Source of the DNA: Austropuccinia psidii
Taxonomy: Eukaryota; Basidiomycota; Pucciniomycetes; Pucciniales; Sphaerophragmiaceae
DNA: 64,000 nt
Direction of reading: 5' to 3'
NCBI GenBank assembly: GCA_023105745.1
Contig: JALGQZ010000005.1
Coordinates: 248,001-312,000 of the forward strand
A program made the position numbers and the translations under genes. Positions 11,199 to 57,583 of this stretch are shown piece by piece (within the stretch, counting starts at the first letter, position 1; the number at the start of each line of letters is the position of its first letter). A model generated the notes under the pieces. It saw nothing but the letters and a program-made list of their open reading frames with translations. It searched no databases and was not told the origin of the DNA.

Positions 11199-11244
11199 CA
11201 CCAGGGCAAATCTCGCGTCAATCGTCGGCGATTGACTTCACGTC
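11199..11244 (+). repeat. Left terminal inverted repeat of the CACTA element
   Basis: 46 bp, reverse complement of 42142-42187 except one C/T difference at position 17. Positions 17-36 of the repeat form an almost perfect palindrome (GTCAATCG .. CGATTGAC), so each end could fold or bind a dimeric protein. Confidence 0.93.
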
Positions 11245-11544
11245 GCACCGCGGTCAGTATAAAATCTTGCTTCAGTTGTGTTAGTGTCACTTTATAGTCA
11301 CTGGATTTAGTGGGTCACGTCACGTCAGCGTCAAGACAACGTCAATCGTCACATGTGTCACATGAGAATGTCACTCAAAGCCCAAACCCATTTCAACACT
11401 ATGCACAACGTTCGTGTAATTTCACCTCATTGGCTTCCGCCTCCCCGACGCTTAGCATGCTTACGCACCCGCACCGCCCTCCATCCAGATGAGACTCCGA
11501 CACTGCCCGCCCCTCTCCGTCCTCACCACTCCTTACGCTTTCAC
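11245..11544. promoter_or_regulatory. Left subterminal region with short repeats
   Basis: Copies of GTCA and ACGTCA-like words cluster here (for example 'gtcacgtcacgtcagcgtcaag' at about 11313-11334 and 'acgtcaatcgtcac' at about 11339-11352). They echo the inverted-repeat core. Subterminal repeats of this kind are bound by element proteins in CACTA transposons; that role is inferred here. Confidence 0.5.
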
Positions 11545-11900
11545 ACCCCACCCCTACCATCCTTACGCTTGTGTAGTACCCTCCCGACATGCCTCCGACA
11601 ACGCTTACCATCCTTATGCTCATGTAGTGCCCTCCCGACATGCCCCCGACAACGCTTACCCTCCCTCCCGACACTGCTTACCATCCTTATGCTCATGTAG
11701 TGCCCTCCCGACAACGCTTACCCTCCCTCCCGACATTATCCCGACACTGCTTACCATCCTTACGCTCATGTAGTGCCCTCCCGACATGCCTCCGACAACA
11801 GTTACCCTCCCTCCCGACATTCTCCCAACACTGCTTACCATCCTTACGCTCATGTAGTGCCCTCCCAACATGCCTCCGACAATGCTTACCCTCCTCACGC
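11545..11900. repeat. Tandem repeat array 1 in the CACTA element
   Basis: About five degenerate units of 52-84 bp, each containing 'tgccctcccgacatgcc', 'acaacgcttacc' and 'catccttacgctcatgtag' in that order. The core ATCCTTACGC recurs in the second array at 27040-27600. Open frames through the array are repetitive by-products rather than genes. Confidence 0.8.
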
Positions 11901-11924
11901 TTCCGTATTACATCCATAGTGTAC

Positions 11925-11948
11925 AGTACGGTGGCTTGTTGGCGTACA
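11925..11948. repeat. Degenerate member of a 24-bp palindrome family
   Basis: The form is AGTACGGTGGCT followed by TGTTGGCGTACA. It keeps the GTACG..GGC and CGTAC arms of the better copies at 14802, 26975 and 37768. Confidence 0.45.
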
Positions 11949-12447: not shown

Positions 12448-14683
12448 ATGGCCCAAACCCCGGGAAATTCAACTGAATTCAATGAACGACCAACTTCAGC
12501 CCCAGAGAGTGGAAGTGAAATCTCTGATATCGCCAGTAGTCGTGAATTAGGCATTGAGGTAGAGAGCCAGTCACATGAAGATAATCAAGATCCACCAGTT
12601 CTTCCAGAAAGTGAGTATGCATCCATCTTGAATATTTCTAATCTCTCAAAACCTGATATTGTGTCATAGCCTTTATTTCAGGGCAGCCTCCAAGCTCTCA
12701 GGAACCGAATTTTAAAAGTTATGAGAAGGAAAAGACTGTTGAACATTGTGCACCGACAGAAGATGATGGGCAAGATGATGTAATTTTCAGTGGGGAGGTG
12801 GAAATTATATCCAAGGAACAATTTGTCTCCAACATTGCTCAAACAATCCCAAGGCTCGAAAAAATTCAAAATGATAGTAAAATTCCTGATTATGTGCGTC
12901 AAAAGATTGCTGAAGCCATGAGCCTGCTCAAAATGGATTTGAACCATAAGTCCATTACTAATTCAAAACAAAGTTGATAAAAATAGCTGCTTACAATATA
13001 TGGGCAGGTGTGGAGGTGGGAGAATCTCTACCTGAAGGATCTCGAGTCGTCATTGGATTTCCAGGCAAAGGATTAGGAAAAAGACCAAATATACATGCGA
13101 CCAAAAAAACAAACAAAAAACGCCGTACCTTTGAAGCCGCAAACAATTCTCGCGATCAAGGTAATGAAATTATCAATGTTGAAGGGGACCATATTGATAA
13201 TCAACCTCCGCATACTGAACCCCCCCCAATACTCAATAAAACAATCCATGATGAAGCTCCACATACTGAAAGCCCCCCGATACCCAATGAAACAATGCAT
13301 GATGCAACCCCTCCCGCCTCTCCTCGGAATATTCAAGCCTTTCAAGAAAGGGAAACAATTAAACATGATACAATGGGATGAGATATGACTGATATAATTC
13401 CTGACGCTGAGCCCAAAGTGTCATCCACTGCAAATTTTAAAGGAATTTTTTTATCCCGCATGGAAGAGTTTGCAGGCATTTTGAATTATCATTCCAATAT
13501 TTCTCAACAATCATGAAAAAGGGGGCTTGATAATATCAATAGGATTTACAAAAATAGATGGGACAATTTACCAACAAAGGATGCTCATACATTCCTTCCT
13601 GTTGGTATTAAGGTGATCAGTAACTGAGAGCTTAAAATGTCGGCCTGGCTGGAGGACCTTGAGATGGCAGGTGAGTTTTATCTTTGTGCGTGATAAATGA
13701 TTATTGGCTGTTGACTGGTGATATAAATTGCAATATACAGGGTTAGATTTTTTTAAGCCAACCAAAACAGAAGCGTTTTTTGATCACAACATTTGCAATC
13801 TCAAATTGATGAAGGAATCAGCTAAACCTCCAGATAATCTCACAAAATCAGAACACTCCTTCTTCAAAATGGTTCAGAGCCTTCTTTACCCCGCCAATCC
13901 AGTTAAACATTTTTGGGCAAATGTTATGTTTGAATCCATTAGTTTAGTCTCATACGATGTGATTGCACCCAAACCATATGTTGCACCAACATCAAATTCG
14001 ACCGATCCTCTTGGACTCGAACGGGGAGCAGTTGAATACCTTGCCTCCTGCTTGAGTAAATCGAAGCAACGTGCAACCCAACTCAGCATTGAAGGTGGCG
14101 TGGCTGACAATGAGATATCCACAAAGCCGCACAAGAACCTGGAGGATCTAATGGATACAGTTATCCATTTGATGATTGCATACAACATGGTACGTGCACA
14201 TACAAAGGTCAAAGTTAATGGCATCAAAGGCAAACTCACAAACTCAAAAAAAATGAGGCCATCAAAGATCTTTTGACGTGTCACAAGAATCTTGGAATAA
14301 ATAGAATTTGCTATGGTATATTAGCGGCATTCTGTGCGGCGGGGGTTCGTGGTTTGATGGTATGCTCAGATGACTGGAGAACAAGCTCAGTTAAAGGGGC
14401 TTTATCACTAATTGACATTTCCGCAAAACTTTCAGAGGGTAAAAATCTAGTGGAGCCAGTGTGGCTAAGTACTAATAAGTATATATGTGATTTACTGAAT
14501 AAAGGTTTCTTCTCATCAGAGTCTTTTAACCCCACTGTACCTCTTAGATTTGAATTTGCACAATGCTTAGTATTAGACTTTGGTGATGCCTGGGTGGCGA
14601 AACGCGGTCTTGGTTCAAGTGATGAGGTCACCTTGACGGTACCCAGGTCAGCTAAACTCACAACCAGGATTGACCCGTTTTAG
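12448..14683 (+). pseudogene. Unrecognised cargo gene of the CACTA element, broken
   Basis: Exon 1 (12448-12610) joins through a GT..AG intron to 12682-12977. The same gene appears to go on in another frame from about 12978 to 13670, with an intron at 13671-13740 and a last exon at 13741-14683. In-frame TGA codons sit at 13379-13381, 13514-13516 and 13625-13627, and a one-base frameshift lies in the eight-A run near 14247. Read through these, the protein is hydrophilic and acidic at the N-terminus, has a basic patch (ATKKTNKKRRTFEA), Pro/Thr-rich repeats (PHTEPPPI, PHTESPPI) and a more globular C-terminus. I do not recognise any domain. Whether the 12448 and 12978 parts are one gene is inferred from spacing and composition. 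Confidence 0.5.
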
Positions 14684-15260: not shown

Positions 15261-16013
15261 ATGCCATTCACGAAAAAAGGAAAAGAGCGTAAAAGGGAAC
15301 TCGCGAGAAAGCGTCGGGCTGAGGAAGGAAAGTGTGAGTTACTTGCTTAATCTCAGTGTATATATGCTTCCACATTTATGTGGCACCCTCATTGGGCCCC
15401 ACGGAAGAACATTGGCTTTAGTCGGTTCAGATTGTGCCAATGTCATGTGGGCTCCAACAGGGAAGTCAAAGGATGTGTGCCGAAGAAAGCTCCTTGGCAG
15501 TATCTGATATCTTGTGTGCTTCAACACATAGTGATCCCTCAACCACTTGGGAATAGTAGCAGATCCCAAAAGACAAATGAGCGCAAAACAACCCAAATGA
15601 ATAGGTTGTTTTCCTCCTCTCACCCAACAGCACAAATATCAATGCCAGTATCAGCAAATATCACCCCAAGTGAAATTCGGAGGGTTGTGGATGTCAATCA
15701 GATCAAATGCATTCACTTTGGGCATGTGGCAATTTTCTCTTCAACCGGATTACTCATTGCCCTTGTCAAATTCCGACCATTCACAACAATGAGTGAAGTC
15801 AAGGTCGATCTATGGGATGAATTATCACAATTCCTATTTCGCGAAAAGAGATTCACCGACCCGATTGCAACCAATGGAGCATTACTGGAGGGATTTATGT
15901 TTGCGATTGGGTGGCGCAAATGCAGCACCAAGAATGAACAATTTGGTCTGTATGGAAGTGTCGGGAAAATTGAAAACGCAAAATATGAATGGCAGAACCA
16001 AGGTCCCAATCTG
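15261..16013 (+). pseudogene. TET/JBP-like 2OG-Fe(II) dioxygenase, N-terminal part (split by element B)
   Basis: A short basic first exon starts at 15261 (MPFTKKGKERKRELARKRR); its donor near 15332-15334 and acceptor near 15430 are uncertain. From about 15663 the frame has the N-terminal part of the fungal Tet-like domain: KCIHFGHVAIFSSTGLLIALV, LLEGFMFAIGWRKCS and EQFGLYGSVGKIENAKYEW. Family members oxidise 5-methylcytosine in DNA using 2-oxoglutarate, Fe(II) and O2. The frame is cut after codon AAT by element B, whose first bases create a TAA at 16014-16016. The catalytic residues are in the other part, so this fragment alone would be inactive. The sequence between exon 1 and 15663 is of uncertain frame. 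Confidence 0.82.
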
Positions 16014-17929
16014 TAAGATGTGACTATGAAACTGATGATAATATTACTATTAATCAACAGTACTATGTCTGTTCTTATGAAATATAATAATAAAAATTAT
16101 TATAACCACAATTAAATAATTATAAAATTATTTCTTTCACGTGTTATACACTACTAGTGATTATAACAGTGAGCAGTAATTGTCTACAAGAATCAATTAC
16201 AAGAAGAATTTAATAATAAAAACTTCTTTTATTAAAATAATAAAATTATTTTAATATATAATTATCTTTTACAAGAATAATTATAAAGATAATTCTTGAA
16301 GAAAGCTATTACTAGAGAAAAACTTTAAGAATTAAAGATAAAAGACTCACTAATACTTCAAAGAACTTATTGATAATAAAAGTAGAGAAATTTGACGTGG
16401 AATTGTGGATTTAAGGGATCAAAAGGATTTATAACAGTATTAGAACAATATATAGTTGGATTCTATGATTTCACGTCTTTCTGATTGATTCTGAAAGATT
16501 AAAACACTTAAGAATAGTTGAACTAATACTTACTTGTTGGTAATAATGATTTAATAAATTGATAAGATGATTCTTGGAAAAAACAGCAAGAGGAGGCCTC
16601 TTTTAAGTCAACAACAGCTCACAGAGGCGTGCCATGGAGCAAACTGAAAAACCAGTGAGTGAGAAAACAATAAACCTTTTTGGATTATTGATTGCATCAT
16701 CAGTTGTCACGTAAGATTATCATAATTACTTATTTGATGCTTTTACGTGACTACCAACCCCAATATGGTTAAGAATAAAAGGAGTAACACTTGTAAATCT
16801 TCTTTTATTCTAAAATAATCATTGATTTCTCAAAGTTATCAATGTTATTGCAAATTTCATCACAGGTTGTAATTACTGTGAATTTTTGAAGATTCAGTGT
16901 TTCACGTAGAATAACCAAAAGTGGACTGTAAGTAAAACTTTGAATTTTACTAGTAAAACTGTAATTCTTTTTGGTTGTACCATAGATAATACAGTTCTCC
17001 TTTAGTCCTGAAAGTTTCAGAAGGATTCATTAAGAATTGTATTTTTAATGAATTTTTGAAGTTTTTACCTTATTTCTACGTAGAATTGCAAATAGCAGTG
17101 TTTTGCTGGTTGCTATGAGGTAAATCAATGAATATGGGTCCCAAAAGGGTTTTAATTACTCTTTTGGGGTTTATCCATGGAAAGTCATTAGTAATTGACA
17201 TGGTTACAGGAGTGTAAGTGGCTCATTACCTCCTTGGCACGTCAAAATAGCAGGTTATTTACTATTTTCTGGTGTTTTACAGTAGTTGTAACTTGGTAAC
17301 CAAGTTCCCAAAGAGTTTTAGTTTACCAATTAGGCCAAGATGAGCCATGGATCCATGCTCTGGAGCTATCCACGCCTCTTAGGCCTCAGAAGTTGGGTAC
17401 CCTGGCTCTCTTTGATGTCTTTTGTCCCCCTTGCCTATTTTTTACGTCAAAATAGTAATTTAAGCTTAAAGTGAGATATCCACTATGGGTGTACCAAAAG
17501 TCCATGTAAGAATACCATGATATTAAGTGCTCAAAACATGCATAACACTATTCTTAGTGTATATGTAACATGGGATTTCTCACTTTCCCATTATTTTGGC
17601 TAAAAATCAAGAAAAACAAAAATTTTCACGGATCTTTTATGTGGTATTAATGATGTGGTATTGAAGTATTTTCCATTTTACCACCTCAAATACTTAAATT
17701 GAGCTTATTCACTCTATGGAGCTACCCTAGGTGAATTTTTGTGTAGAATCCAAATTTGGTCTTAAATCCATGGATTTACTTACTCAATAAAAAGTTATTC
17801 ATCTTTTCTGAAATTGAAAATGATGAATTTTGGATATATGCATTACTTATGAGTTGTGCATAATTCAAAATTTCTTTTTAAGATAATTGTGGCCTATTTG
17901 GGTATGTAAAATATACCTCAAGGCTCACA
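16012..17929 (-). repeat. 3' LTR of element B (left copy)
   Basis: On the minus strand it runs TGTGAGCCTTGAGG .. CATCTTACA. It is preceded (minus strand) by the polypurine tract GGTGGGAGGGAA at about 17930-17941. Its start resembles the LTR start of element D, so B and D are related families. Confidence 0.93.
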
Positions 17930-18069
17930 TTCCCTCCCACCAAAAAATAAAATTGTACTACAATTTTATTAGTGATAAAAGAATAAGGCCCCAAAGGGGG
18001 TTAATGTCCACTGTCCAACCTCTTCACATTACTCAGATCAAGTAATTTCAAGCACATTTATAGACATAT
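17930..18069 (-). other. Polypurine tract and 3' untranslated region of element B
   Basis: On the minus strand the pol stop is followed by about 130 bp and then the purine run GGTGGGAGGGAA directly before the LTR. This is the expected plus-strand primer of an LTR element. Confidence 0.75.
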
Positions 18070-20289
18070 TCAGGCTTGTCGCCTTCTTTCATGTCTAAAT
18101 CTTCTCAAGAGTTTATCTGAGTCAGGTATTTCTGATTCTGCCATCCATTCATCTTCATGTACTGAATTTCTATATCTGACAAGATATTCTCTTTGATTTT
18201 TACCCCTAAGTCTCCTTTCTTTAATGACTTTCTTTATCTTTTTGTCTTCATTCTGTTCCACAGGTGGTACAGTTAAAGGAGTTGGGTTCCTTAAAGGAAA
18301 CAATTCTTTATCAGCTGGTTGATAAGGTTTTATCAAGCTAACTGGAAATGTGGGGTGTTTATTTTCCAATTCACCACTCAATTCCACTTGAACTGCATTG
18401 GTTCCATGTAAGGCAACAATAACAAAAGGTCCTACATAAGAATCTTTAAGTTTCTTTGGGCCTTTGATATTATTAAAATTCAAGGTTGAAACTAAAACTA
18501 AGTCCCCTACTTTGAAGTCTGGTACTTTATGACTCTTGTCCCACTTCTGTTTTGCATAATCAAAAGCATCATCAATACTTTGTTTTGCATGATGTTTTAC
18601 TTTATCAAGCATTATCTTGAAGCTGGAAGCTGTAGGATGAATGTAAATCAAGTCTTTCCTCAGTGTGTCTGCTGGGAGTCTTGGATTCCATCCTTTCTCT
18701 AACATAGCAGGAGTTTGTCCTGTGGAAGAATGGACTGATGTCTTGTATGCCAATTCTAATGCAGGTATCAGAGTGCACCAGTCATGGGTAAAGCCATCTG
18801 AGTCTTTGAATTCTAATCCATAAGCACAGAATCTCCTGATCATGTCTTCTAAAGTTTGAATCATCCTCTCTGCTAGCCCATCTGTTTGAGGGTGATATGC
18901 TGTAGAGAATGATAACTTGGTCCCAAACAATCTATGAAGATTGGTCCAAAGTGCAGATGTGAATTTGGGATCTCTGTCACTTATGATATTCTTAAATAAT
19001 CCTGTATTAGAAATAACTCTACTCCATAAAAGAAGAGCTGTATCCATAGCAGTGTCATCTTTATGACATGGTAAGAATATGGGAGTTTTGCTATATCTGT
19101 CTACAATGACTAAGCAAGCATTATAACTTTTGTCACCACTTGGAGGAAGTGCTGTGACCCAATCCATGTGAACAACTTCCCAAGGGGATTTTGGTTCTTG
19201 AATATGGATCATCAATCCAAATTTCTTGCCTGTACTCCTGTTTTCTTTTTGGCATCTATCACAGGTATGGCAATACTCAATGGTTTCTTTTCTCCAAGAT
19301 GGCCACCATGCACAGTTCTTCACTTTTTCAAGTGTTCTGTCTTCTGATAGGTGTCCAGAGTAAATACTATCATGGCATTCATGAAGAATGGTATTGATAA
19401 GCAATCTACTACACAGTGTCATCACAAAAGGATGTTTTGTTCTATGGTAAATAATCCCATCAAACAAGTGAAATCTTCCCTCAGAATAGGAATTTTTCCA
19501 AACTTCATCTAGTGCATTAACCAAAGATGTGTCTTTGCAGTCTTTATCCAATAAAGAAGTCAAGATATGGCAATTCTTGTCTTGTTTATAAGACTCTCTG
19601 ACCTCTTCAAAGAATTCAGTCCCAATATCAGTTATGTTAATTCCTTCAATTGGAATCTGTGGTTCAGCTTCCAAAGGTACATAAGCTGGGTTATCAGGAG
19701 TGTTGGCTAAAGCCCATCTACTAAGTCCATCAGCATTCTTGTGAATGTTTCCTGCTTTATGAACTATAGTCATGTTTCCTCTATATTCTTGAATGGCTAT
19801 TTGCCATCTCAACATATGTCTGTTGGGAGTTTTCATGTTAAGGAGTGATTTCACAGCATTACAGTCAGTTATCACTTCAAAAACACTGCCATCAAGGTAA
19901 TAGTGTAATTTCTCAAGTGCCCATACCAAACATAAGCACTCCATTTGGCTTGCACCATATCTGGCTTCTGTTGGTTTGATTTGCCTTGAGATATAACAAG
20001 CTGGTCCTTCTGTAGGTTTGTCATCAATAATTTGGACTTGATGTAGGGCTGCCCCTAATCCATCTCCACATGCATCAATGTACAATTTAAAAGGAATATT
20101 CCAGTCAGGCATGAGGAGTAAAGGTGCTTCTGTAAGGGCTTTCTTTATCTTCTCATAAGCTTTAATTCTTTCTTGTGTCATCTCAAATACAGTCTGTTGA
20201 TCACAGATTCTATAGAGTGACTTGGCTAGAATTGCGAAATCTTTCAAGTGCTGCCTATAGTAACTAGCAAATCCAAGAAAAGACATCAT
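18070..20289 (-). CDS. Pol of element B, part 2: RNase H, integrase, chromo-like tail
   Basis: This 739-codon frame directly follows a nonsense codon in the same frame as 20290-21780. It begins at the end of reverse transcriptase ([15 protein letters not shown]). RNase H follows ([27 protein letters not shown]). Integrase has its zinc-binding CDRCQK, catalytic Asp in [10 protein letters not shown], Asp in [10 protein letters not shown] and Glu in [11 protein letters not shown]. The C-terminal [19 protein letters not shown] is chromodomain-like and probably targets integration. All catalytic residues are present. Expression needs readthrough or repair of the upstream stop. Confidence 0.93.
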
Positions 20290-21780
20290 TTATTTTTTAT
20301 TCTGGGGTATTGGCTTAAGTAACACTGCTGCCACTTTATTTTTGTCAATACCCAAGCTCAAACCAGAAACAACATGTCCTAATGCTTTGAGTTCTTCAAA
20401 ACCAAAATTGCATTTCTTAAGTGAAATTTTCATGTTCACTTCTGCAACTTTATGAAGTACTCTTGCAAGTCTTTCAAGGTGCAAAGACCATGAGTCAGAA
20501 CATATAATAATATCATCAATATAAATGATAAGCCATCCTTCAGACAATTCTGTGGGGAAGATGGTATTCATCATTCTTTGATAATGAGATGAAGCGTTTT
20601 TAATGCCAAATGGCATTCTAAGATACTCATAAATACCACAGTGAGTGATAATTCTAAGTAATTTCCTAGCTTTAGGCGTCAAAACATTCTGATGGAAGCC
20701 TTTCAATGCATCCATTGATGTTATATACTTGGCTTTAGACAATTGAGTCAAGGTTTCTTGGATTCTAGGGATTGGATACCTATCTGGAACTGTGTAGGTA
20801 TTCAAAGCTCTAAAATCTCCAACCATTCTTGACTTATCATTATGCCATACAATAATAACAGGTGTTGTCACTTCAACTTCTTCATTATGGCCTACTTTCC
20901 TTAGCACACCAAGTTGGATCAACTCTTGGATATGTTTTTCCAAGGCTTCTCTAGCTCTGGGACTGGCTGAATAAGCTGGTCTTCTAAGTACTGGAGGATA
21001 TGGTCTATCAATATTAAGAGTAATATCAATTTCATGTCCTCTTATAGCACCTAATGGTTCATTATCAGATGCAAATGCATTATTGTATGTATATAATACA
21101 TCAATAAGTTCATTCCTCATCTTTGGTGACAATGATGGATTAATTTGTGCTTCAACAAGTTGTTTAGACACAAATTCATCTTTGTAAGTATCTTTGACAG
21201 AAGATACTACAGATATCTGTTTTGGTATATTGGAGAAAGCAAATTTTTGCCTTTTGTTATCTCCAATTGTGAAATATCTGTCTTTATGGTTATTTATATC
21301 AATACCATAAATATTCAAGTAATCATTTCCAAGAATGATGTGCTGAGATGTGCAATTATCCATTACTACAATCTCAGTTTTCATTCTTACACTTCCTGCT
21401 GGATGTGGGAATACAATATTAGTGTCCAATATGCCCAAGGGGTACATATTGTTACTGGCACTACTGAATTGTACACCTTCTATTGGCAATAGATGGTTTT
21501 TCCATTCAGGAAGTATAATTTGGAGATAGTCTTTGCCAACACAAGTGCAAAATGCCCCTGTATCCAAATTAACTTTGGCTTCAATATCACCCATCAGAAC
21601 TGATGTGATACAGGATGCTCCAGCAGTATAACCTTTTCCTTTAGCAGGTTTTGTTTTACACATTCTGGCTTCTTGGATATTGATCAGGTTGCAGCAATCC
21701 TCACTGTACTGTGGCAAGTGTGTATGGACTTCTGTGACCTCAAAGAAAGCTGTAATGTTTTCAATGGGATAGTCCTCCAC
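20290..21780 (-). CDS. Pol of element B, part 1: protease and reverse transcriptase
   Basis: This 496-codon frame has the aspartic protease motif LDTG (Asp at residue 73) and reverse transcriptase with PIPRI (336-340), the first catalytic Asp in [11 protein letters not shown] (about 357) and YIDD (420-423). It ends at a TAA where the intact element D has a Glu codon, so a single G-to-T change separates it from the RNase H/integrase part. Upstream it is open to the zinc-knuckle frame of Gag. The product would replicate the element in cytoplasmic virus-like particles. Confidence 0.93.
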   Translation of the reverse strand: MEDYPIENITAFFEVTEVHTHLPQYSEDCCNLINIQEARMCKTKPAKGKGYTAGASCITSVLMGDIEAKVNLDTGAFCTCVGKDYLQIILPEWKNHLLPIEGVQFSSASNNMYPLGILDTNIVFPHPAGSVRMKTEIVVMDNCTSQHIILGNDYLNIYGIDINNHKDRYFTIGDNKRQKFAFSNIPKQISVVSSVKDTYKDEFVSKQLVEAQINPSLSPKMRNELIDVLYTYNNAFASDNEPLGAIRGHEIDITLNIDRPYPPVLRRPAYSASPRAREALEKHIQELIQLGVLRKVGHNEEVEVTTPVIIVWHNDKSRMVGDFRALNTYTVPDRYPIPRIQETLTQLSKAKYITSMDALKGFHQNVLTPKARKLLRIITHCGIYEYLRMPFGIKNASSHYQRMMNTIFPTELSEGWLIIYIDDIIICSDSWSLHLERLARVLHKVAEVNMKISLKKCNFGFEELKALGHVVSGLSLGIDKNKVAAVLLKPIPQNKK

Positions 21781-21889
21781 TGGTGTATCCTCAGAGACTG
21801 AAGAATCTTGATCAGACTCTTCTTTCTCTTCAGTACACTGACTTTCTTCAATGACTTGAACTTCATTGATTTTTGTCTTTTTTGTGCAA

Positions 21890-23777
21890 GTGTTTGCTAA
21901 ATGTGAAGTACTTCCACATTTATGACACTTAAAGACAGGTCTTTATGGTCTTTATCCTCTCTTGGAATATTTGGGACCATCTTGGATTCTATAGGGATTC
22001 TAGTCCAAGTTTTACCAATTCTTGTTCTGGAAATGATATCTTCCATTGCATTAATGTAGTCCTCTGTTGAACAGGGTTCCACACATCTGCTTTTGATAGC
22101 ATGTTCCAGTTCTCCTCCACACTTTCTTAATATTTTCATATTAATCATAGTGTCAGACATATCTGGGTGTAAAGCAGATAATCTGTCTTTTTGTTTGAAG
22201 AACCAAGTAAGTGGTTTGTCTTTTTCTGAGTTAAAAATGGCACTTTCAAAAGCATTCTCCATTTTAAACCTCCAAGAATTATTGGCCCATTTGGTAATCA
22301 CTTCAGATTTCCACCAAGACCAGTCATGTCTTCCATGATCTATTCTCATCTTGTAATACCATTTCTTTGCAGTCTTGGTAAACAAACAATGTAGTTTCCC
22401 TACTATGATTTCATCAGGTATATTAAAGTCTTCTTGCAACATATCAATAGTCCTGATGAATTCAATATGGTTGTATTCTCCTTCACCAGAGAATGTTGGC
22501 CATTCTTCTAATTTTGGAATATCTTTTGCAGAAATAACATTTTCTCCTAAGAATGGAGTCAAACTCTCTTTAACAGAAAGTTTTTCTTCAGTCAAAGGTG
22601 TAGAATGCCTTGGCATATGTGGTTCATGGTTCTTATGAATTTGCTCCACACTTGCAATTATTTCATTCTTTAATATCTGTCTCTCACTATCAATTTTTGC
22701 TAAATGTATAGCAAATTGATTGGTGTTCTTAACTATTTGTAAGACATGGTCTTTGAGAGTCTTAAGTCTATCATTTACTTTAAAAATGGAAGGATCCTCT
22801 GTGTCATTATTTTGACATTGGTTCTCAATTCTATCACAAGCATTGCTAATTGACTCAAGGGTGACAGTTGTCAATTGATGCCAATCAGAATGTTGCTTGT
22901 CACTTTTCTTTAAATCATTGATGTCTAATGTAATTTGCTTTAAATTTGACTCAAGTTTGCCAATTTCTACACTAATACTTCTATGTACATCATTTATTTG
23001 CGTGGAAAAGTCCTGTTCATCCTTTCCTGCTCCTTGGCTGTGAATTCCATAAGAGTTCTGGCCATATTCAAGACACTGTCCACGGCTGAAGGCTCCAATC
23101 TGGGGATCCTGTACCCTTGTGGGTAAGGTCTGTGCCAATTGGCTTTGCCTTTGCCCTTGCCTTGATGGTTCTTGGGACCTCTCTGTTTCTTTTGAGGTCC
23201 TTTGGGCTTGTCCTTGGATGCTTCTGGAGCTGGTTTGGAGCTGGTAGATGCCACTGGTGCCTCTGTCTCCAAAGTTGGAGTCATTTCCAACTCTTTCTTC
23301 TGGTCTATGGATAAAAGACTCTGGTTCTTCAACCAATTCTTTATCTTTTTGACCTTGTCTTTGCAAGACAGGGGGCTCCAACCTCCTAAGAGTTCTATGG
23401 TCTTCTCCTGACCCAGAAAGCTCTTGATGTGTAAGTAGGAGTTCATGGCCCCCTGCCAAAGGCTTGGGCAGATTTCCCACTCCTCTTCTTTGGCTGCTCT
23501 GAACCAATTTTTGTACTGGCTCTGATATATTTCTATTGCTGCCACTTGAAAATGATTCAGCCCTGGAAATATTATCATAAATTAGTTCAGGCTCAGAATT
23601 CACGTCCAAATCTGTTGGTACAGACCTTGGGGAATGGGGGGCAACTCTGGCATTCTCCAAATGTGTCTTTCTTGTGGAAGACTTGACACTTCTGGATTTG
23701 GTCTTGCCTCTTCCTTGTCCACATCCATCTGGCTGGACTGAATAGTTGCTTCCATTTCTGGTATGCACCATTTTCAC
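21890..23777 (-). pseudogene. Gag of element B, frameshifted at the zinc knuckle
   Basis: The 626-codon frame 23777-21897 starts MVHTRNGSNYSVQPDG. It has a long Ser/Arg/Gln-rich N-terminus, a predicted coiled-coil stretch (about residues 255-410) and a capsid-like domain ([55 protein letters not shown]). A one-base insertion near 21940 puts the CX2CX4HX4C knuckle (CHKCGSTSHLANTC, about 21890-21935) in the frame that continues into pol, so gag and pol were probably one fused frame as in element D. Confidence 0.88.
22994..23578 (-). CDS. Open frame overlapping gag of element B in the +1 frame
   Basis: A 194-codon frame lies entirely inside gag and +1 to it. It has a Trp-rich, globular-looking first half (YKNWFRAAKEEEWEICPSLW, LLGGWSPL), a Lys/Pro-rich middle and the C-terminal [18 protein letters not shown]. 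Element D's overlapping frame shares YK, W, GVMNS or GAMNS, GW(N/S)PL, YRIPR and MARTLMEF in the same order and the same relative frame. Such matching argues for real translation; no function is known. Confidence 0.6.
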   Translation of the reverse strand: MIIFPGLNHFQVAAIEIYQSQYKNWFRAAKEEEWEICPSLWQGAMNSYLHIKSFLGQEKTIELLGGWSPLSCKDKVKKIKNWLKNQSLLSIDQKKELEMTPTLETEAPVASTSSKPAPEASKDKPKGPQKKQRGPKNHQGKGKGKANWHRPYPQGYRIPRLEPSAVDSVLNMARTLMEFTAKEQERMNRTFPRK

Positions 23778-23778
23778 G

Positions 23779-26287: not shown

Positions 26288-26292
26288 CAATC

Positions 26293-27000: not shown

Positions 27001-27039
27001 CTGTCCTGGTTTGTTGCTATTGTCCAGGATACCAATGCT

Positions 27040-32399: not shown

Positions 32400-34967
32400 A
32401 TGTCAACCCCTTCACAACAACTTTGCATTGGGATGATTAATATTCGTATTCCAATAAATAGTGATATAGCCTTAAATCCTGAGAATTCCCCCTTAGCTTC
32501 TTGGATTATCATATGGCACAATCAACACAACATATTTGTTTATCTCCCCAATCACCAGCGTGCTATTGGCTCTCTACCTGCAACCCTTTCCAAAACGTTG
32601 ATACCATTCCTTGGGGCACCAAAACCTTTCATGCACTGTGGTCCTGGTGGGGCATGGATTGAAAATTGCCAATCCAATCCTACTCAAATATTATTTGTTG
32701 AGGGAGTATTTATGACTGATGCAAATGATCCCTCCTCATCTCAGAAACCCAATCTAGCATTGATGTTCTTCACATGGTATCCAAACCTTTTATTCATAAT
32801 GGAAAGCTTTCGAACACAAGATTTCAAGCTTAAAATGCCCAAAGAATATGACTTTAATACTCATAGTCAATGTCACCTTTTTACTCCATCATTTCCCGCT
32901 TCAAACTCAACGCAAGCTTCATATCCTGCTGTTTCATCATTGATTTCCAAGCAAAAACTGATACAATTACCCAGTGGATCGGACCTCCCCATGATGACCC
33001 CGCCCCATGCCATTATTCAAACCCCCCTCCTCCCTCATCAAAAGACCGGACTAGCTTTTCTCTGGGATCGAGAAATCCCCAATGGCCAATCAGCCTGTAA
33101 CCTTTGGGCCACCTCACCCCCAGGATCCACTTTCAATGCCAGGAACATCATTACAAACAAGGTCGTTAGCTCATTTGAATCCCTTTCGACCAATACCCCT
33201 CTTGGAGGACTGCTTGCGCATGATATGGGTTTAGGTAAAACCATTCAGGCCATTGCTCTAATTGGTACCTCCAAGGAGCGGATGATTGCAAACCCCCATC
33301 GCTCCACGCCCACCATGATCATCTGCCCCCCTCGCTTAATTACCAACTGGCAATCAGAAATATCCAAGTATGCTCAGGCTGGAGCGCTGCATTCCAAAAT
33401 CTACCATGGTCCCACTTGTCACTCATTATCCAAAGACGACATCTTAAAATATGATATCATCATCACTTCTTATAATACTATCACCCAACAATTTAAGCAA
33501 ACCAATCCCTCTACATCATTCATTTTTCAAATCAATTGGCATCGTATAATTTTGGATGAAGCACAGTGAGTGTCTGATCTTAAATGATTCAAATTACCTT
33601 TTATATCCAATAGCCCTTGCCCCATCTTATAGCTATATTCGCTCTCAATACACTGCCACTCACCGTGCCATTAATAGCCTCCTTTCATCCCTCCAAATAT
33701 GTTTAATGGGCACACCTATTCACAACACCATTTATGACCTTTTGGGCATAATATCATTCATCACTCAACCCCAGAGCGCTGATCAAGATAACTGGTCACC
33801 ATTCATCCTGAGTAGTCTTTCCAAAGGTTGCAATGATATCTTGCATTTGGCATTGCGGCATTTAAGTTTGCGCCGCACCAAAACCACACATCTCAAATCC
33901 CTCCCTACTATTAGCCATCATTATGAGCTGCTCCCACTCAACCCAACCATGCAGCAAGAATATTCCATATTATATGAAGAATTCCTATCATCCAAAAGCA
34001 AAGGACCAGGAGAATTTTTCAGAAATATTAATAAGCTGCAAATATGTTGTAACCATCACCTCATGCTTAACACAATTGCGGAGGCAGATTTGGAAGACCC
34101 CAAGGGCAGGAGCACTCAGGATAACTCGCCAACAATCACACGAACTATTGTGGATGTCGAAACATGCATGATGAGTAGTAAAATTGCACACCTCCTACAA
34201 AGCTTAATGAAGAACAAACAAACAAGGTGTGGTCCAACCAAATCGGTGGTTTACTCCCAATGGACCCAATTTCTAGATTTGTGCGTTAATTCTAATATGC
34301 ATCCATTACCAATTGAATCCATCTGACTTTTTCATATTGTAGAATTGGTATTGCCCTTGCCCATCACTCTATCCTTTCAGCACAAATTGATGGAACAATT
34401 ACAGCACGAGCACAGGAGAAGGCACTGGAGAATTTCTTCAATAATCCTGAATGTGAAGTACTGATTGCATCCATTGCCGCAGCTGGAACTGGCCTCAATA
34501 TAACTTGTGCTAATACGGTCTATTTAATGGTGAGGGGACCCCCAAAATTCTGCCCTGATTTGCGGCCCCTGACATCCACATTTCCAGGAGCCCAATTGGA
34601 ACCCAGCCATTGAGGCTCAGGCTGTTGATTGACTCCATCGTATTGGCCAACAACAACCTGTAAAGGTCATCCACTATATCACTCCTCATTCAGTTGAGGT
34701 CAACATGCGGAAGGTACCTTTCAGGATCATCTTTGACCCTAATTGTATTGCTATTCTAAAATCCTTCCTTATGGAAATGCCATTTTCCAAACACCAATAG
34801 GTCCAAGAAAAGAAAAAATCATTAACTGCGTGAGCCTTACTGATATTATATAATTTGTGTTTGACCAAGTTGATAACTCTTGTTTACCCTGGCATAGGTC
34901 CACAATTATGAACACCATGAGTTGGATCAAACTCCTTCAATATTTTCTCAATGAAAATGAGCAATAG
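32400..34967 (+). pseudogene. SWI2/SNF2-family ATPase/helicase cargo gene with one premature TGA
   Basis: Six exons: 32400-33565, 33633-34280, 34343-34529, 34588-34713, 34801-34829 and 34898-34967, all GT..AG. Helicase motif I (DMGLGKT, residues 275-281) lies after a roughly 270-residue N-terminus. Splicing of intron 1 completes motif II as DEAH (386-389). Motif III is CLMGTPIHN. The second lobe has SVVYSQWTQFLDL, AAGTGLNIT, EPNWNPAIEAQAVD and HRIGQ. Motif VI normally has an Arg before xHRIGQ; here that codon is TGA (34630-34632), which fits CGA to TGA. Such enzymes use ATP to slide or unwrap nucleosomes or remodel protein-DNA complexes (Rad5/Rad16-like subgroup by feel). Inside a transposon it may open chromatin. 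Activity of this copy is doubtful. Confidence 0.85.
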
Positions 34968-35135: not shown

Positions 35136-37197
35136 TTATTGCAGAGCATCACCATTCGGCCTAATAACTGGCATGTCAAGTATCTTGAGGGCGCTAGTCT
35201 GCATCTTACTACAGCCTTTGAGCCAATCTTGATCAAATACCTGAAATGATAAGCCTTCCAGAATATCACCATCATCTGTCGATCGTAATTCTGGCAAACT
35301 ATCAATAGTTTTTTTACCCTTTTTTTTAATGCGATTACAAAACTCTATGTCTCGATCCATTTTTAATACCAATTCATTAAATAACTGGGAGCGCCAGCGT
35401 AATCCCACTTTGCGGTAAACTTGACGGCCATTTTCCAGTACCTCCTCAGTATCTGAACATACTCGAGGGTCATTGAATTGTGATGCTAGAATGGGAAATT
35501 TAGCTGTATCACACCATTCACGACGGCGCTCACAGGTCTGCCCATAATGAAGTAGATCATCATCAGTATTTGCTCCCAATGAAAAAGAGATACATTAACT
35601 AACCCTTTGACGAATCTTCGCGAGCTTTTGATTCTCCTTCTTTTTAACCAAATACTCGGCATCCTTTTGAATAGACTTCCATTCTCTTTTCAAATAAGTG
35701 AAATATTGCTCCATTAAAGCCGCCACGACCCCATAGTTATTATGATCCTTGTTCCAACAGTAATGATGATACTCGGTGCTGACCAGTGCAAGACGGAATG
35801 TACGGTAAAACACCATAGACATCAGCTCATTGAACGGATGTTGCCATGAGCTCTCCCAGTCCCAAGTGAATCGCTTTAGTCCTAGCTTGTGGAGCTCATT
35901 TTCGCAGTAGCTTTGGAAACCCTGAGACTGAACCTGTGTTGATGGCTCATTGAAAACATCCTTGGGGACATATCCGAGATGACCAGCCACTTGAATTGCA
36001 ATTTCACGCTCTTCTGTGCTTGGTGGTGCTGGTAGTGAGGAAAAATCCTTATCCCTAACTTTGAGTAGGAACAGGCAATGTGCATGTACTGCTGATCTCA
36101 TTCCATGGACATTCTCTGGAAGTTCTGCTTTCAGCCATTTTTGTTGCTCCTTCTGGCTTGCACGTTTTGCCACATTGTGAGCTTTACAAGCCTGGTTCCT
36201 TTGCTGTCTGACCTTGGATTGTTCAAGCATACTCTGGGCAAGGGGCATTTGAGGATGGGTGAACTCATTATTTGACTGAGTGCCATGATCATGCACCGTG
36301 AAATTGTCACTCCTTGCTTCATCATTTGTTTCCATTTGAGTCGGAGACATGTTCTCATCCTCATCATCCACCATTTTTTCTCTTGATGAACTGGCATGAG
36401 CTGTTCTTGGTTTGGAGGAATATGGATGATGACGTCCAGTGACTTTCTCTTTATGGACCAGAGGTAAAGATGCATCAAGTGCATCACCTGCCATGCACAT
36501 CATCAGTTAACACATCAAAAAATGAATGAAGACTGGTCATACTCACAATCTTCAATTGGCTCCTGCGATCGGACTGACTTGCCTTTAGGTGCCATATCTA
36601 ACCCATGAAACAAACATATCAAATTGTGAAAAAGGTTATACTCTGAAATTAAAATGACTTACTTTGATGAAGCGTCAATCCTGGATTTCCCTCCGACAGA
36701 CCACTCCAAGTTACATTCTCCAATGGTCTTTTTCGTCGCCCCCCATCCACGCGCCTTTCATCACCCACATGAACCTGAGATCCTGATGGAATATTGAGGG
36801 TTGGCTGTTTACTTTGGCCAAAGGGATCCTGGGATGCGACTGGATTCTGACCGGGATTAAGGAGGAACTCACGTGGAAATTTTGATTGGGGATTGGCGTG
36901 TGATGAGATTTGAGGTGTGCCTTCTGGCCCCTGAGACACATGCGTTTGTGTATTAGTGGGATTTGGGGGAATTGGAGTGACGGAAATATTTGGTATCAAC
37001 CAAGTGCTTGAAGTTGGAGCCTTTGGATTGCCCATATCAATGTTAAGACCTGATACATTCATTGAGGATGCAATAGGGGTTGTGAGAGGAATGTTGGGGC
37101 TCAATGGTGACTGTGTTTGAACATATTCTATGCTAGATTCACTATTTGAGTCATGAACAGAACCTGAACGGGATTTATGTGACTTGAAAGATGACAT
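35136..37197 (-). CDS. Companion protein of the Tnp2 transposon, four exons, intact
   Basis: Start at 37197 (MSSFKSHKSRSGSVHD). Exons 37197-36663, 36597-36547, 36487-35604 and 35537-35136 join in frame to 623 residues with no stop. The first 200 residues are Ser/Pro/Asn-rich and disordered-looking. A basic patch (RRVDGGRRKRP) may be a nuclear signal. A second region (QQRNQACKAHNVAKRASQKEQQKW) is basic and helical. The C-terminal 280 residues look globular (GLKRFTWDWESSWQHPFNEL, STEYHHYCWNKDHNNYG, TCERRREWCDTAKFPIL). I do not recognise a named domain; my impression is of proteins found beside Tnp2 transposases in basidiomycetes. A TnpA-like role, binding subterminal repeats, is inferred from position, integrity and divergence from the transposase gene. 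Confidence 0.7.
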
Positions 37198-38158: not shown

Positions 38159-41100
38159 ATGACAACCCGCCGCTATTCCTCAATGCGTATATGCATGTGT
38201 CAACACTGCTCAACTCAAACACACTCTTCCCCTGAGGGTGATAGGCCTGGAGTTGCCTTCACACCTTTCCAATATAAACAGCAAATTAAAAAGCTCAAAT
38301 CAACCATTGCACCCAAATCTCTTCCAAACATCCCTACTTCTGCATCAGGATCTGAGTGCCCACAACTTCTATTGGATCAAACATTCCCAGCTGATTATTC
38401 ACCACCATGGGCCCAAAGCATCTTCTCCACAGCACCGGGGCTCAATTCAATTGCACAGAAACCATACAGCAGCAGTCAAACCCTTCCTCCACAAGACCTT
38501 GGAATGATAATATCTGCCATTCTATCATTAAGGTATAATATACCCCGCAGGGCTTCACGCATTCTCCACCCCGCCCTAAACCTGCTGATCAAGTCCAGCA
38601 TCTCAAGCTCCGGTGGTCCCCCCATTCCTGCATTCCATATACCTCAAGATCTGAGTACCATATTTGAACATCTCCAATTGGAGCCAGTGATTCAAAACTA
38701 TATATGTTGTCCTCAATGTTTCTCTCTTAATGGCCTTACTGAATCAGTCACAACTGACCAACCCCACTGTCAACTCCATAATGACCCAAATGATCATGAT
38801 CCCCCTTGCACACAATCATTAGGCAAATTCATCTATTCATTTGAAGCCCACACCCAAAACACCACCAACATGAAGCAAAAATTCATACCAAGAAAACATT
38901 TCATTTATCAACCATTCAAAAGTTGGCTTGCCAGATTTCTCCAGCGGGCTGGAATTATGGAAATCCTGCATCAACATCAACAATCCCAAACTCCCAAAGA
39001 TTCCCCAAAATGTGACGTCTGGGATGGATTGGTCTGGAGACGCTTCACTGGCACTAGAAATATCAATGACCCCCCATTCATGTCCATTCCTGGTGCATTG
39101 GCCTTCTCCATTTATGTGGACTGGTTTAATGCACATGGAAAGTCCACCCGGCTCGCCAGCATTGGACCTATCATGCTTATTTGTCTTAATCTCCCCCCAA
39201 GTGAAAGATTGAAGCCACAGAATGTCTATGTCGCAGGAATAATCCCTGGTCCAAAGGAGCCAACTTCCCTTCAATTGAATTATTTATTAATGCCACTCAT
39301 CAAGGAGCTCAAAGAGCTATGGCAAGGTTACCATTTTTCACCCACCTCAACAGGTCCTTCAGGATCCTTTATCCGTGTTGCCATTCTCACAGCCATTGCG
39401 GATGTGGTTGCCATGCGCAAGCTTACTGGATTTATTTCCCATTCAGGCAACCACTTTTGTAATTTTTGCACCATTCACAAAGCTCAAATTGATGAAATTG
39501 GTCCTCAATTTCACTACACATGCTCATATCAAAATCATAAATCAACCATTGCCAAATGGCTTTGGGCAACCCCACAACAAAGACAAGCAATTTTCTCTGA
39601 GTATGGAGTGCGATATTCAATTTTAGAAGACCTTCCGTATTGGGATGCCACCAGAATGGTTAATCTTGACATAATGCATAATTTAATACTTGGAATTCTG
39701 AAGGATCATGCAACTTTCAAATTGTGCATTCCAGAGTCCAAATCAAAAATTTACCTCAGGTCCCGCAGGAAATCCAACGAAACCAACAGTTCAGACTCAG
39801 ATTCCATGACCTCCAACAGCTCTCTTGATAAAATCACATTGAGAGAGGCCCGCTCCCTGAGAAGAGACACAGCAAAAATAATAAATGAGCCACTCCCCAC
39901 TACTTCCACCCAAAAAAACTACTTCCCAATGCCCACCCCTAACACAGAACATCCATCTAGTGGTTCTGCGGAGATTCCTTCATTTGATGCCGATTACATC
40001 CCCACTTCTGAAATCCCCTCTGAATTGGATATCACTGCACTGAGTGATCACCAGATCAAGGGTGAGGCTCTGGAGCATCTCCGACAAATCATATCTGAGA
40101 CAATAATTCCCTCATCGTGGACAAGAGTACCTCGCAACATGGGTTCCCCCTCTCATGGTAGCTTAAAAGCCGCTGAATGGGCTCTCTTATATAAGGTCTA
40201 TATTCCATTTTTAATGCTCAGTCAACAGATGTCATTAGATGTACACCAATCCGCCAACATTCAAAGGCAAATGGGTCAGTCAGAAGACCTTGGAAATGAA
40301 CTAACCAAGAATACATTCCATTTGATTAGTGCTATCAACATTGCCACAAGTTGGACTGTTTCAATAGGAGATGCGACTGCATTTGCTGAACATTGGAAAA
40401 CATTCCGCCTTTCCAATCAACTCCTGTTCCCAAAACAGAAAAGTAAACCAAATCATCATTTTGCTGACCATATTCCCGAACTCTTCCAACGTTGGGGCCC
40501 AGCACAAGCCTCAGCCACATGGGGTTATGAGCGCTTGATTGGAGTATTTGCAAAAATGCCAACAAATAACAAAATATGTACATCAATTAATAAGATCAAT
40601 ATATTCACATTGATTAAACACCTGAACTGAATAAGATTAACTTCTGGCAACTCTAAATAGATGATATAGATAAAACCTTACTTCAACATATCAGTCGATG
40701 TTCCAACCTTTCCGTTCTCCTGAAATCCCCATCCATGCCATGTGAAATAAAACAGCTTTTCGAATCACAGCCACCTGCCCTGTTCAATGACCATAAATAT
40801 AACAAACCATCCCGCCATGACCAAGAAAATTATGATTGCCTGGTTGAGTACTTACAGAATTTTCATGCAACAAGGGAAATAGTTGATTGGATCAGCTTAG
40901 ACACTATCGTGCAATCCACAAGTCATCTCACTTCAAGGATTGTCTCACCTTGGTATTTTCCAGTTTCAAACATTAATATTGGGAACAATATATTTTCAAC
41001 TGAATCCAAAAATGTCAGCAACAGTGTGATATGTTTTCTGAGGGGCAACTCACGACACTTTGGTATTATTAATAGCATTTTTAAAGTCTCTGAGCCATCT

Positions 41101-41322
41101 AGCATACTGAACAATAACTTTCTGATCTTAAAAACTTTGAAGATTGATGTGAATTTCTTACCAGATTGGCCGCATCTGAAGATTTATAAAGCTGTTGGTT
41201 TTGATGATGGACACTTGATTATATCTGAAGAAGAAATAGAAGGTAACTGTGGATTGTATGATAACAAAGTTCTGTCATGTGGACTGCTTGTAATGATAAA
41301 GCCGTTATTTCATGAAATTTAG
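38159..41322 (+). CDS. Tnp2-like (CACTA superfamily) transposase, intact
   Basis: Two exons, 38159-40577 and 40670-41322, joined by a GT..AG intron, give 1023 residues without a stop. The N-terminus has CMCQHC and a Pro/Ser-rich stretch. The core matches the fungal Tnp2 pattern as I know it: DGLVWRRF, SIPGALAFSIYVDWFN, YVAGIIPGPKEPTSLQ, IADVVAMRK (Asp 415), HFCNFC (434, 437), LPYWDATRMVNLDIMHNLILG (Asp 504) and the late WGYERLIGVFAKMPTNNK. Asp 415 and Asp 504 are candidate metal ligands of the RNase H-like fold; the Glu is not placed. Such enzymes cut at CACTA-type ends and leave 3-bp duplications, as seen at 11199 and 42187. It is the best candidate mover of the 31-kb element. Confidence 0.85.
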
Positions 41323-42141
41323 TCTACAGACATGCAAATATCTCAGATTCATTAGCAATTTTGCTAGTGAAATAACTGCCTCAAAATTTAGTGACAGAGA
41401 CATGCCATTGTGACAAGCAAAGCCCATTATTTCACATTGCCACAAAGAACTTACTATTTTGACATTGGGTACAGTGTGAATAAGCCAAGTTCAATGATCA
41501 AATGACCCACACACTCACCTTTCACAGCATCCAAAATTTCTAACTGCGCCATCATCATGTTGGAAGGGGAAGCGGCCCTTGCGCACACGCCAATGCACAC
41601 GCAAGCGCACCCGCACCTACACACGCGGTACTGTGCGGCGGGCTCTACCAGTGTCACCTGCAAAACGACAATCCCGCTCAGGTGGAGTCCTTTCATGGAC
41701 GACCTGGTGAAGTCAAACCCCCCGCCAAAATTTCTAACGGCGCCATCATCATGTAGGAAGGGGAAGCGACCCTTGCGCACCCGCACACGTGGCATTGTGC
41801 GGCGGGCCCTACCAGTGTCACCTGCAAAACGACAATCCCGCTCAGGCGGAGTCCTTTTATGGATGACCTGGTGAAGTCAAACCCCCCGCCTACATCAAGA
41901 CTGGCTGAAGGACCTCTTTGATGTGTGTTTTTGCAAACAGGCGGGTCTTGTGTAATTTTTCCCAACCATTGGACGGTTGCGGGATGATCAGGTGGTGAGG
42001 AATCTGAGTTGAAGGCACAGGGGAACCAATATTGGTGGATGTCACAGGATTTGGTGTAAGACAAGAGTAGGACGTGTGCTCGACGTTCGCTTGATTTTTG
42101 CTTGACGTGAGCTCAACTTTTATCCTGCTTGATGTTTGCTT
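41323..42141. promoter_or_regulatory. Right subterminal region of the CACTA element
   Basis: It contains a direct repeat of about 170-190 bp (41531-41724 and 41725-41891) and, close to the end, repeated 'gcttgacgtga' and 'gctcgacg' words at about 42078-42141. No gene is supported. Terminal repeats of this kind are binding sites for the transposition proteins in other CACTA elements. Confidence 0.55.
41531..41891. repeat. Two-copy direct repeat near the right end
   Basis: Each copy runs from 'ccaaaatttctaac' through 'cgccatcatcatgt', 'gtgcggcggg' and 'caatcccgctcagg' to 'gaagtcaaaccccccgcc'. The first copy has extra 'cacacgc'-type bases. Confidence 0.85.
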
Positions 42142-42187
42142 GACGTGAAGTCAATCGCCGACGATTGACACGAGATTTGCCCTGGTG
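42142..42187 (-). repeat. Right terminal inverted repeat of the CACTA element
   Basis: 46 bp, ending GAGATTTGCCCTGGTG, followed by the TSD CAA. One mismatch to the left repeat. Confidence 0.93.
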
Positions 42188-57581: not shown

Positions 57582-57583
57582 AT

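What the first reader, a model, noticed from the sequence alone, without database searches (positions are those of the whole stretch)
11199..42187. A 31-kb CACTA/Tnp2 transposon carrying a TET/JBP dioxygenase, a SNF2 ATPase and a Cys-cluster protein
Both ends, the 3-bp TSD and the clean rejoining of the host pol codon show one mobile unit (20.7 kb without element B). Its cargo is all of a chromatin or DNA-modification kind, beside an intact transposase and companion gene. Fungal TET/JBP genes are known from work by Iyer and colleagues to have spread with KDZ-class transposons. Here the carrier has CACTA ends and a Tnp2-like enzyme, which would be a different vehicle. I cannot say whether this element family has been described.
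Basis: partly seen in the sequence, partly recalled or inferred. Interest (0 to 1): 0.9.

Follow-up and report, generated by a model that had tools for sequence, protein, structure and literature searches.

The report
Rust-fungus transposon carrying TET and SNF2
This is a real, recently multiplied jumping gene of a rust fungus that carries, besides its own transposase, a DNA-demethylase-like enzyme (of a kind already known on such elements) and, as the new part, a chromatin-motor enzyme that looks like a working component of the element.

Summary
The element is real: a 20.7-kb CACTA/EnSpm-type (CMC) DNA transposon, 31 kb here only because a 10.3-kb Gypsy retrotransposon sits in its TET gene. 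The first 35 bases of its ends occur about 2,900 times in this 1.015-Gb genome, almost certainly Austropuccinia psidii. Of 12 copies read in whole or part, all 11 with both ends in hand have a perfect 3-bp target duplication; the gene order is the same in 7 of 7 other copies read end to end (one has an internal deletion). TET-carrying EnSpm elements with CAC..GTG ends and 3-bp duplications in rusts were published in December 2025 (Kojima, PMC12730594), so the vehicle is not new. Not found in print in my searches: the SNF2 ATPase as fixed companion, with 46 TET-SNF2 pairs at 6.69-6.85 kb genome-wide (0.03 expected) and purifying selection on SNF2 like that on the transposase. The 'companion gene' is the transposase's second exon. 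The window copy is decaying: TET split, SNF2 with a premature stop. Copies change C to T at CpG, most at TCG, as expected of methylated repeats. Most likely reading: a transposon with a two-enzyme anti-silencing kit; the joint function is inferred, not shown.

The parts
11196..11198 (.). target-site duplication CAA, left copy (right copy 42188-42190)
11199..11244 (+). left terminal inverted repeat CACCAGGGC...
   Evidence: 2,894 occurrences of its first 35 places with up to 2 mismatches in the genome, 0 for the reversed control
12448..14683 (+). ORF1, no known family, broken by stops in the window copy
   Evidence: best Pfam hits below cut-off
15351..16011 (+). TET-like dioxygenase, first part of main exon (a short upstream exon from about 15261 is possible, not tested)
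   Evidence: Pfam PF20515; whole frame of copy C E 4.7e-47
16012..26287 (-). element B, Gypsy LTR retrotransposon inserted in the TET exon; TSD CAATC at 16007-16011 and 26288-26292; absent from 7 of 7 other copies read end to end
26293..26868 (+). TET-like dioxygenase, second part of main exon, with the HxD motif (H 26496, D 26502) and distal H (26691)
   Evidence: positions read by eye off (the script missed them); H288 and D290 of copy C nearly invariant among 25 relatives
28014..29370 (-). Cys-cluster (Zn2Cys6-like spacing) protein gene, broken in the window copy; motif at 29278-29370
32400..33565 (+). SNF2 ATPase exon 1 (motif I DMGLGKT, start of DEAH)
33633..34280 (+). SNF2 ATPase exon 2
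34343..34529 (+). SNF2 ATPase exon 3
34588..34797 (+). SNF2 ATPase exon 4 (motif VI); premature stop at codon 682 in the window copy
35136..37197 (-). ORF5, no known family, at least three exons (36652-37197, 35598-36503, 35136-35594)
   Evidence: selection test on the two longer pieces
38159..40577 (+). transposase exon 1, CMC type: D..D..C2C..H3H..E
42142..42187 (-). right terminal inverted repeat

Best explanation
A CACTA/EnSpm-type (CMC) cut-and-paste DNA transposon of Austropuccinia psidii, about 20.7 kb long, whose autonomous form encodes a 1,025-residue Tnp2-like transposase, a TET-like dioxygenase, a RAD5/RAD16-type SNF2 ATPase and up to three further proteins. SHOWN here: the ends and 3-bp duplications, the fixed gene order, recent amplification, and past purifying selection on transposase, SNF2 and ORF5. 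INFERRED: the TET enzyme oxidises methylated CpG of the element while the SNF2 motor moves nucleosomes or other proteins off it, so the transposase gene can be expressed and the ends reached in a genome that silences repeats by CpG methylation. Older copies then lose CpG by C-to-T change and die, as the window copy is doing.
For: Perfect 3-bp TSDs in 11 of the 11 copies with both ends in hand, out of 12 copies; the same gene order in 7 of 7 other copies read end to end, one lacking an internal stretch. Genome-wide, 46 same-strand TET-SNF2 pairs at 6,690-6,848 bp between capped lists of 102 and 106 hits, 0.03 expected by shifting; 12 SNF2-transposase pairs, the window among them, at 5.69-5.76 kb among 56 scored transposases; SNF2 and TET at fixed distances from the ends. 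Selection: SNF2 differences fixed between subfamilies 20 N: 23 S against single-copy changes 86: 36 (p 0.0046); transposase 32: 31 against 83: 32 (p 0.0038); ORF5 main piece 15: 17 against 31: 11 (p 0.017). Recency: 102 scored TET hits at 99-100% identity, 101 without stop; 106 scored SNF2 exon-1 hits at 98-100%, 105 without stop. Silencing footprint: single-copy C-to-T changes at TCG 128/380, ACG 64/344, CCG 51/357, GCG 44/401, every non-CpG context at most 0.030. The authors of PMC8063080 find the methylation machinery and CpG-poor repeats in A. psidii (passages).
Against: No activity of TET or SNF2 was measured and no expression or methylation data were at hand. The TET gene gives no selection signal by the same test (7:3 against 36:13, p 0.55; few fixed changes). 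SNF2 is open in only 5 of 12 copies read. The element's high CpG ratio (0.52-0.66) may reflect youth rather than protection. SNF2's best solved relative is RAD5, not DDM1/LSH, so a role in repair or replication is as natural as one in silencing.
Confidence: 0.55

Rival explanations
1. SNF2 helps transposition mechanically (repair of the gap or blocked replication forks after excision, as RAD5/HLTF do), and only TET is an anti-silencing gene.
For: Closest solved relative is RAD5 (185 bits, next 142.6); the tree puts it on the side of HLTF, RAD16 and RAD5.
Against: Pfam found no RING or HIRAN domain in the window's exon 1-2 pieces or in the A. psidii relative P0057; these carry much of RAD5/HLTF function (recalled). 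The long branch leaves activity open.
Confidence: 0.25
2. SNF2 and TET are passengers captured once and amplified by a successful transposase, without benefit to it.
For: Many copies carry dead SNF2 or TET genes and still share the ends; the copy with the internal deletion, without the second part of TET, also has a clean TSD, although the deletion may be later.
Against: Selection on SNF2 is like that on the transposase; SNF2 relatives at 74-85% identity occur in A. psidii MF-1; 46 of 102 scored TET hits have a scored SNF2 hit at one fixed distance although both lists are capped.
Confidence: 0.12
3. The high CpG content shows only that the element is young; TET protects nothing.
For: Young copies are 98-99% identical; the genome paper reports lower GC and fewer CpG in older repeats (passages).
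Against: Gypsy element B landed inside the window copy, hence later, yet its CpG ratio is 0.109 against 0.556 for the surrounding copy; this speaks of the two lineages' histories, not directly of TET.
Confidence: 0.4
4. The unit is a composite of two nested transposons rather than one element.
For: It is large and has genes on both strands.
Against: Same ends, order and 3-bp TSD in the copies read; fixed spacing genome-wide.
Confidence: 0.02

Closest known systems
TET+ EnSpm (CACTA) families of rust fungi, Kojima 2025 (PMC12730594)
   Same: CAC..GTG termini, 3-bp TSD, transposase with weak Plavaka similarity but EnSpm class, TET/JBP gene, rust host; related EnSpm families named from A. psidii
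   Different: The main text mentions no SNF2, ATPase or chromatin remodeler (0 occurrences of snf2, atpase, swi and remodel) and says TET transposons encode no additional protein for further modification; its Table S1 could not be opened, so this very family may be listed there by its TET
KDZ (Kyakuja-Dileera-Zisupton) TET transposons, Iyer et al. 2014 (recalled; not held)
   Different: Zisupton and a Dileera family make 8-bp TSDs (PMC12730594); here 3 bp, and no KDZ profile match
Plavaka (PlavakaB, TET+)
   Same: Same CMCT clade; 2-3-bp TSD; weak profile match
   Different: Termini CATCA..TGATG in PlavakaB (passage); Pfam Plavaka 23.9 bits, below its cut-off of 26.3
Baculovirus GTA, an SNF2 'global transactivator' on a virus
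   Same: An SNF2 ATPase carried by a selfish genome; found in the same search (27% identity over 70-71%)
   Different: Groups with animal TTF2 in the tree, not with this SNF2; function recalled

Membership tests
EnSpm/CACTA (CMC), TET+ rust families | CAC..GTG inverted termini | tested here: met
   CACCAGGGC... or CACCGGGGC... at the ends of the copies read
EnSpm/CACTA (CMC), TET+ rust families | 3-bp TSD | tested here: met
   11 of 11 copies with both ends in hand
EnSpm/CACTA (CMC), TET+ rust families | Tnp2-type DDE transposase with C(2)C and H(3-4)H between second D and E | tested here: met
   Transposase_21 E 4.6e-15; D, D, FCNFC, HFADH, E aligned with 7 homologues
EnSpm/CACTA (CMC), TET+ rust families | TET/JBP gene inside the ends | tested here: met
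EnSpm/CACTA (CMC), TET+ rust families | Groups with the published families in a transposase tree | not tested
   published family sequences not held; supplement not readable
KDZ | 8-bp TSD and KDZ transposase profile | tested here: not met
   3-bp TSD; no KDZ family among Pfam hits
Plavaka | Pfam PF18759 above cut-off; TGT.. or CATCA.. termini | tested here: not met
   23.9 bits against 26.3; termini CACCA/CACCG
TET/JBP dioxygenase | Profile match and HxD...H triad | tested here: met
   PF20515 161 bits against cut-off 27; H288 and D290 in at least 90% of 25 sequences; distal H read by eye
TET/JBP dioxygenase | Oxidation of 5mC | not testable with these tools
   structure model failed (mean pLDDT 35.5); no PDB sequence match at E 0.1
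TET/JBP dioxygenase, PU type | PU-type conserved residues | not tested
   reference sequences not held
SNF2 ATPase, RAD5/16-like grouping | SNF2 motifs and nearest relatives RAD5/HLTF/RAD16/TTF2 | tested here: met
   PF00176; RAD5 best in PDB; named hits; tree, (long branch, no DDM1 or ISWI rows included)
RAD5/HLTF proper | RING and HIRAN domains | tested here: not met
   none in Pfam scans of the window exon 1-2 pieces and of P0057; the N-terminal model failed, so a divergent HIRAN is not excluded

The most novel reading that the evidence does not exclude
TET and SNF2 work as one module: a transposon-borne chromatin motor opens silenced copies for a transposon-borne demethylase, so a DNA transposon carries its own remodeler-assisted demethylation machine against host CpG silencing, and this kit drove the recent burst that left about 2,900 recognisable ends in this genome.
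Probability: 0.3. Interest if true: 0.8.

Novelty: new variant of a known kind. Interest (0 to 1): 0.5.

Why it matters
Transposon-borne TET enzymes are known in fungi, but why they are kept is open. Here a second enzyme of a chromatin-acting kind is locked to TET at a fixed spacing and shows purifying selection like that on the transposase, in a genome whose repeats lose CpG by C-to-T change. Many near-identical copies, some with TET or SNF2 dead, make the anti-silencing idea testable with long-read methylation data.

Tried and rejected
Structure prediction of the TET frame (25-row alignment, pLDDT 35.5) and of the SNF2 N-terminus (10 rows, pLDDT 31.8) failed; no fold search was run on them. 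PDB sequence search with TET: 0 matches at E 0.1. Idea that a second TET family sits in the same element: rejected for the one locus held, since L047 is the same element at 94% DNA identity. Idea that SNF2 might come from a DDM1/LSH-type remodeler: not supported (RAD5 185 bits, DDM1 121.5). Reading the 221-residue ORF as a companion gene: rejected. KDZ and Plavaka membership: rejected (see membership test). Three further paper searches that included SNF2 or helicase terms showed, apart from PMC12730594, nothing relevant in their listings.
Full report
WHAT WAS CHECKED. The window is G000:C5:248001-312000 of a 1,015,390,075-base assembly in 84 contigs. Its nearest named relatives are proteins of Austropuccinia psidii MF-1: the top 12 transposase hits, the top 9 SNF2 hits and all 120 listed TET hits. 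With the size and GC content published for A. psidii (1.02 Gb, 33.8% GC; passages of PMC8063080), the host is A. psidii or very near it; no species marker was compared.

ENDS AND TARGET SITES. The 46-nt inverted ends are 98% complementary. The first 35 places of the end, with up to 2 mismatches, occur 1,426 times forward and 1,468 times reverse in the genome, against 0 and 0 for the reversed control. Seven copies were fetched: five from the list of 40 left ends and two from paired ends. All seven have a perfect 3-bp duplication (ATT, TGA, TAG, AGA, TGA, AAT, TTT), and the window copy has CAA. Four more copies (H-K) were chosen from TET-SNF2 pairs and fetched in part; three had both ends in the fetched stretch and all three have duplications (TAT, ACT, TGG); for the fourth only the right end was in the stretch. 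One copy (C4:10865348-10881320) sits inside another copy of the same element, with TSD TGA.

ANATOMY. Without element B the window copy is 20,708 bp; six others are 20,598-21,249 bp and one is 15,973 bp through an internal deletion that removes the second part of TET and the Cys-cluster gene. Order: ORF1 (+), TET (+), Cys-cluster protein (-), SNF2 (+, four exons), ORF5 (-), transposase (+, two exons). Element B (16012-26287, LTRs 99.3% identical, TSD CAATC) is in none of the seven other copies. The transposase is 1,025-1,026 codons long when its two exons are joined and keeps D, D, C2C, H3H and E in line with homologues from Phakopsora (47% identity), Puccinia graminis (42%) and Agaricomycetes. 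The Cys-cluster motif is found in 6 of 8 copies; from the motif to the next stop there are 385 residues in one copy and 91-202 in the other five, so this gene is mostly broken or spliced in a way I did not work out.

STATE OF THE GENES. Transposase open: 7 of 12 copies (C, E, F, window, I, J, K). TET open: 5 of 8 (A, C, D, F, G); the window frame has no stop but is cut by element B, one copy has a stop, one has the deletion. SNF2 open: 5 of 12, copy A to codon 737, and E, H, I and K to codon 723, where the younger subfamily ends; the window copy stops at codon 682. Copies H-K were picked from best-scoring lists, so these fractions are not unbiased.

CARGO RECURS GENOME-WIDE. The searches score only a capped number of hits. 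SNF2 exon 1 of the window: 106 scored of 6,413 candidates. SNF2 exon 1 of copy F: 106 of 6,455, 98-100% identical, 105 without stop. TET of copy C: 102 of 7,902, 99-100%, 101 without stop. Transposase exon 1 of the window: 56 of 10,273. Between the TET list and the SNF2 list there are 46 same-strand pairs at 6,690-6,848 bp; shifting gives 0.03 on average and at most 1 in 500 trials. With the SNF2 list there are 6 pairs. SNF2-transposase: 12 pairs, one of them the window, at 5,691-5,759 bp, shifted mean 0.008. Left end to TET: 5 pairs among 40 ends; left end to SNF2: 2. SNF2 to 122 listed ends: 7 links, one of them the window, shifted mean 0.08. Because the lists are capped, the share of all copies that carry each gene is not known.

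SELECTION. Eight copies fall into two subfamilies: {window, A, B} at 95.5-96.9% and {C-G} at 98.0-99.3%, with 93.9-95.5% between them. Differences fixed between subfamilies are compared with changes seen in one copy only. Transposase 32 N: 31 S against 83: 32 (p 0.0038); SNF2 20: 23 against 86: 36 (p 0.0046); ORF5 main piece 15: 17 against 31: 11 (p 0.017); ORF5 first piece 1: 4 against 24: 10 (p 0.047); TET 7: 3 against 36: 13 (p 0.55, no signal); all together 75: 78 against 260: 102 (p 8e-7) (stops counted with N; one-sided Fisher; the five gene tests are not corrected for number). So the source lineage held transposase, SNF2 and ORF5 under constraint, and copies decay more freely after insertion. 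For TET, conservation rests on open frames and on relatives, not on this test.

SILENCING FOOTPRINT. Among changes seen in one copy only, C-to-T (both strands) per site is 0.337 at TCG, 0.186 at ACG, 0.143 at CCG, 0.110 at GCG and at most 0.030 in any non-CpG context. PMC12730594 cites a TCG mutation preference in repeats of Pucciniomycotina (section 4.2). CpG observed/expected: 0.52-0.66 for single copies of the element (0.68 for their majority sequence), 0.085-0.099 for the two window flanks, 0.109 for element B, 0.05-0.29 for the flanks of five other copies, 0.93 for 5,577 bases in 10 chaperonin-like coding stretches. Youth alone could keep CpG in the element; the control by TET-free transposons of the same age was not made.

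SNF2. Besides nine A. psidii MF-1 proteins (74-85% identical), the further listed hits are 25-46% identical over 17-74% of the query, and those with informative names are mostly TTF2, RAD16, HLTF, RAD5 or SMARCA3-like (7,993 candidates scored, 3,731 significant, 120 listed). No Puccinia or Phakopsora protein is among the 120 listed, although transposase homologues of both were found; this suggests, but does not prove, that SNF2 was gained in the Austropuccinia line. Closest solved structure: RAD5. In a tree of 32 rows the transposon SNF2 is on a long branch in a group of 8 rows (94/90 support) with five other proteins (Geranomyces, Anaeromyces, Myriangium, one of unknown source, and one named TTF2 from Arthroderma), on the side of HLTF, RAD16 and RAD5; animal TTF2 and baculovirus GTA lie on the other side of the midpoint root.

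LITERATURE. PMC12730594 (Kojima, December 2025): abstract, sections 3.1, 3.4 and 4 and the figure legends read, plus passages. It describes TET+ EnSpm families with CAC..GTG ends and 3-bp TSDs in P. striiformis, related EnSpm families in A. psidii, and four Austropuccinia TET clusters; whether the A. psidii EnSpm families bear TET is not plain from the text. Its main text holds 0 occurrences of snf2, atpase, swi and remodel. Its supplement was not readable, so whether this family is in its Table S1 is open. Searches for SNF2 with EnSpm (2 papers, both plant papers judged unrelated from the listing) and for SNF2 with KDZ or Plavaka names (18 papers, SNF2 count 0 in each) found no description of an SNF2-carrying transposon of this kind in the held library. 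Iyer et al. 2014 is not held and is recalled only; it may mention further cargo. PMC8063080 and PMC12210899: passages only.

VERDICT. A real element, published in kind (TET+ EnSpm of rusts), with a new and well-supported extra: an SNF2 ATPase as a fixed, selected gene. The anti-silencing kit is the best reading but is inferred.

Noticed in passing
L012-L013 (G000:C4:10864848-10881820): A 15,973-bp copy with an internal deletion lies inside the transposase gene of another copy of the same element, TSD TGA: self-nesting with a ready empty site.
   Followed up: partly
11528-11903, 27136-27622, 30085-30662, 41612-41895: Imperfect short tandem repeats near both ends and downstream of TET; alignments suggest that their number differs between copies. 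Possibly transposase-binding subterminal repeats as in other CACTA elements (recalled); not tested.
   Followed up: no
57551-63379: A second Gypsy element in the window with one open frame of 1,942 residues (RT, RNase H, integrase).
   Followed up: no
right ends of copies C-G and H-K (L014-L028, L039-L045): A second end variant (CACCGGGGCGAAT) marks the younger subfamily; it uses up both mismatches allowed, so that end count may miss copies.
   Followed up: no
35136-37197: ORF5 has no known family yet its main piece shows constraint much like the transposase; a candidate second transposition protein.
   Followed up: partly
L048 (G000:C14:11364479-11366302): An older relative of the element (81% DNA identity over 2.6 kb) that matches the MF-1 protein P0197 at 97-99%.
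   Followed up: partly
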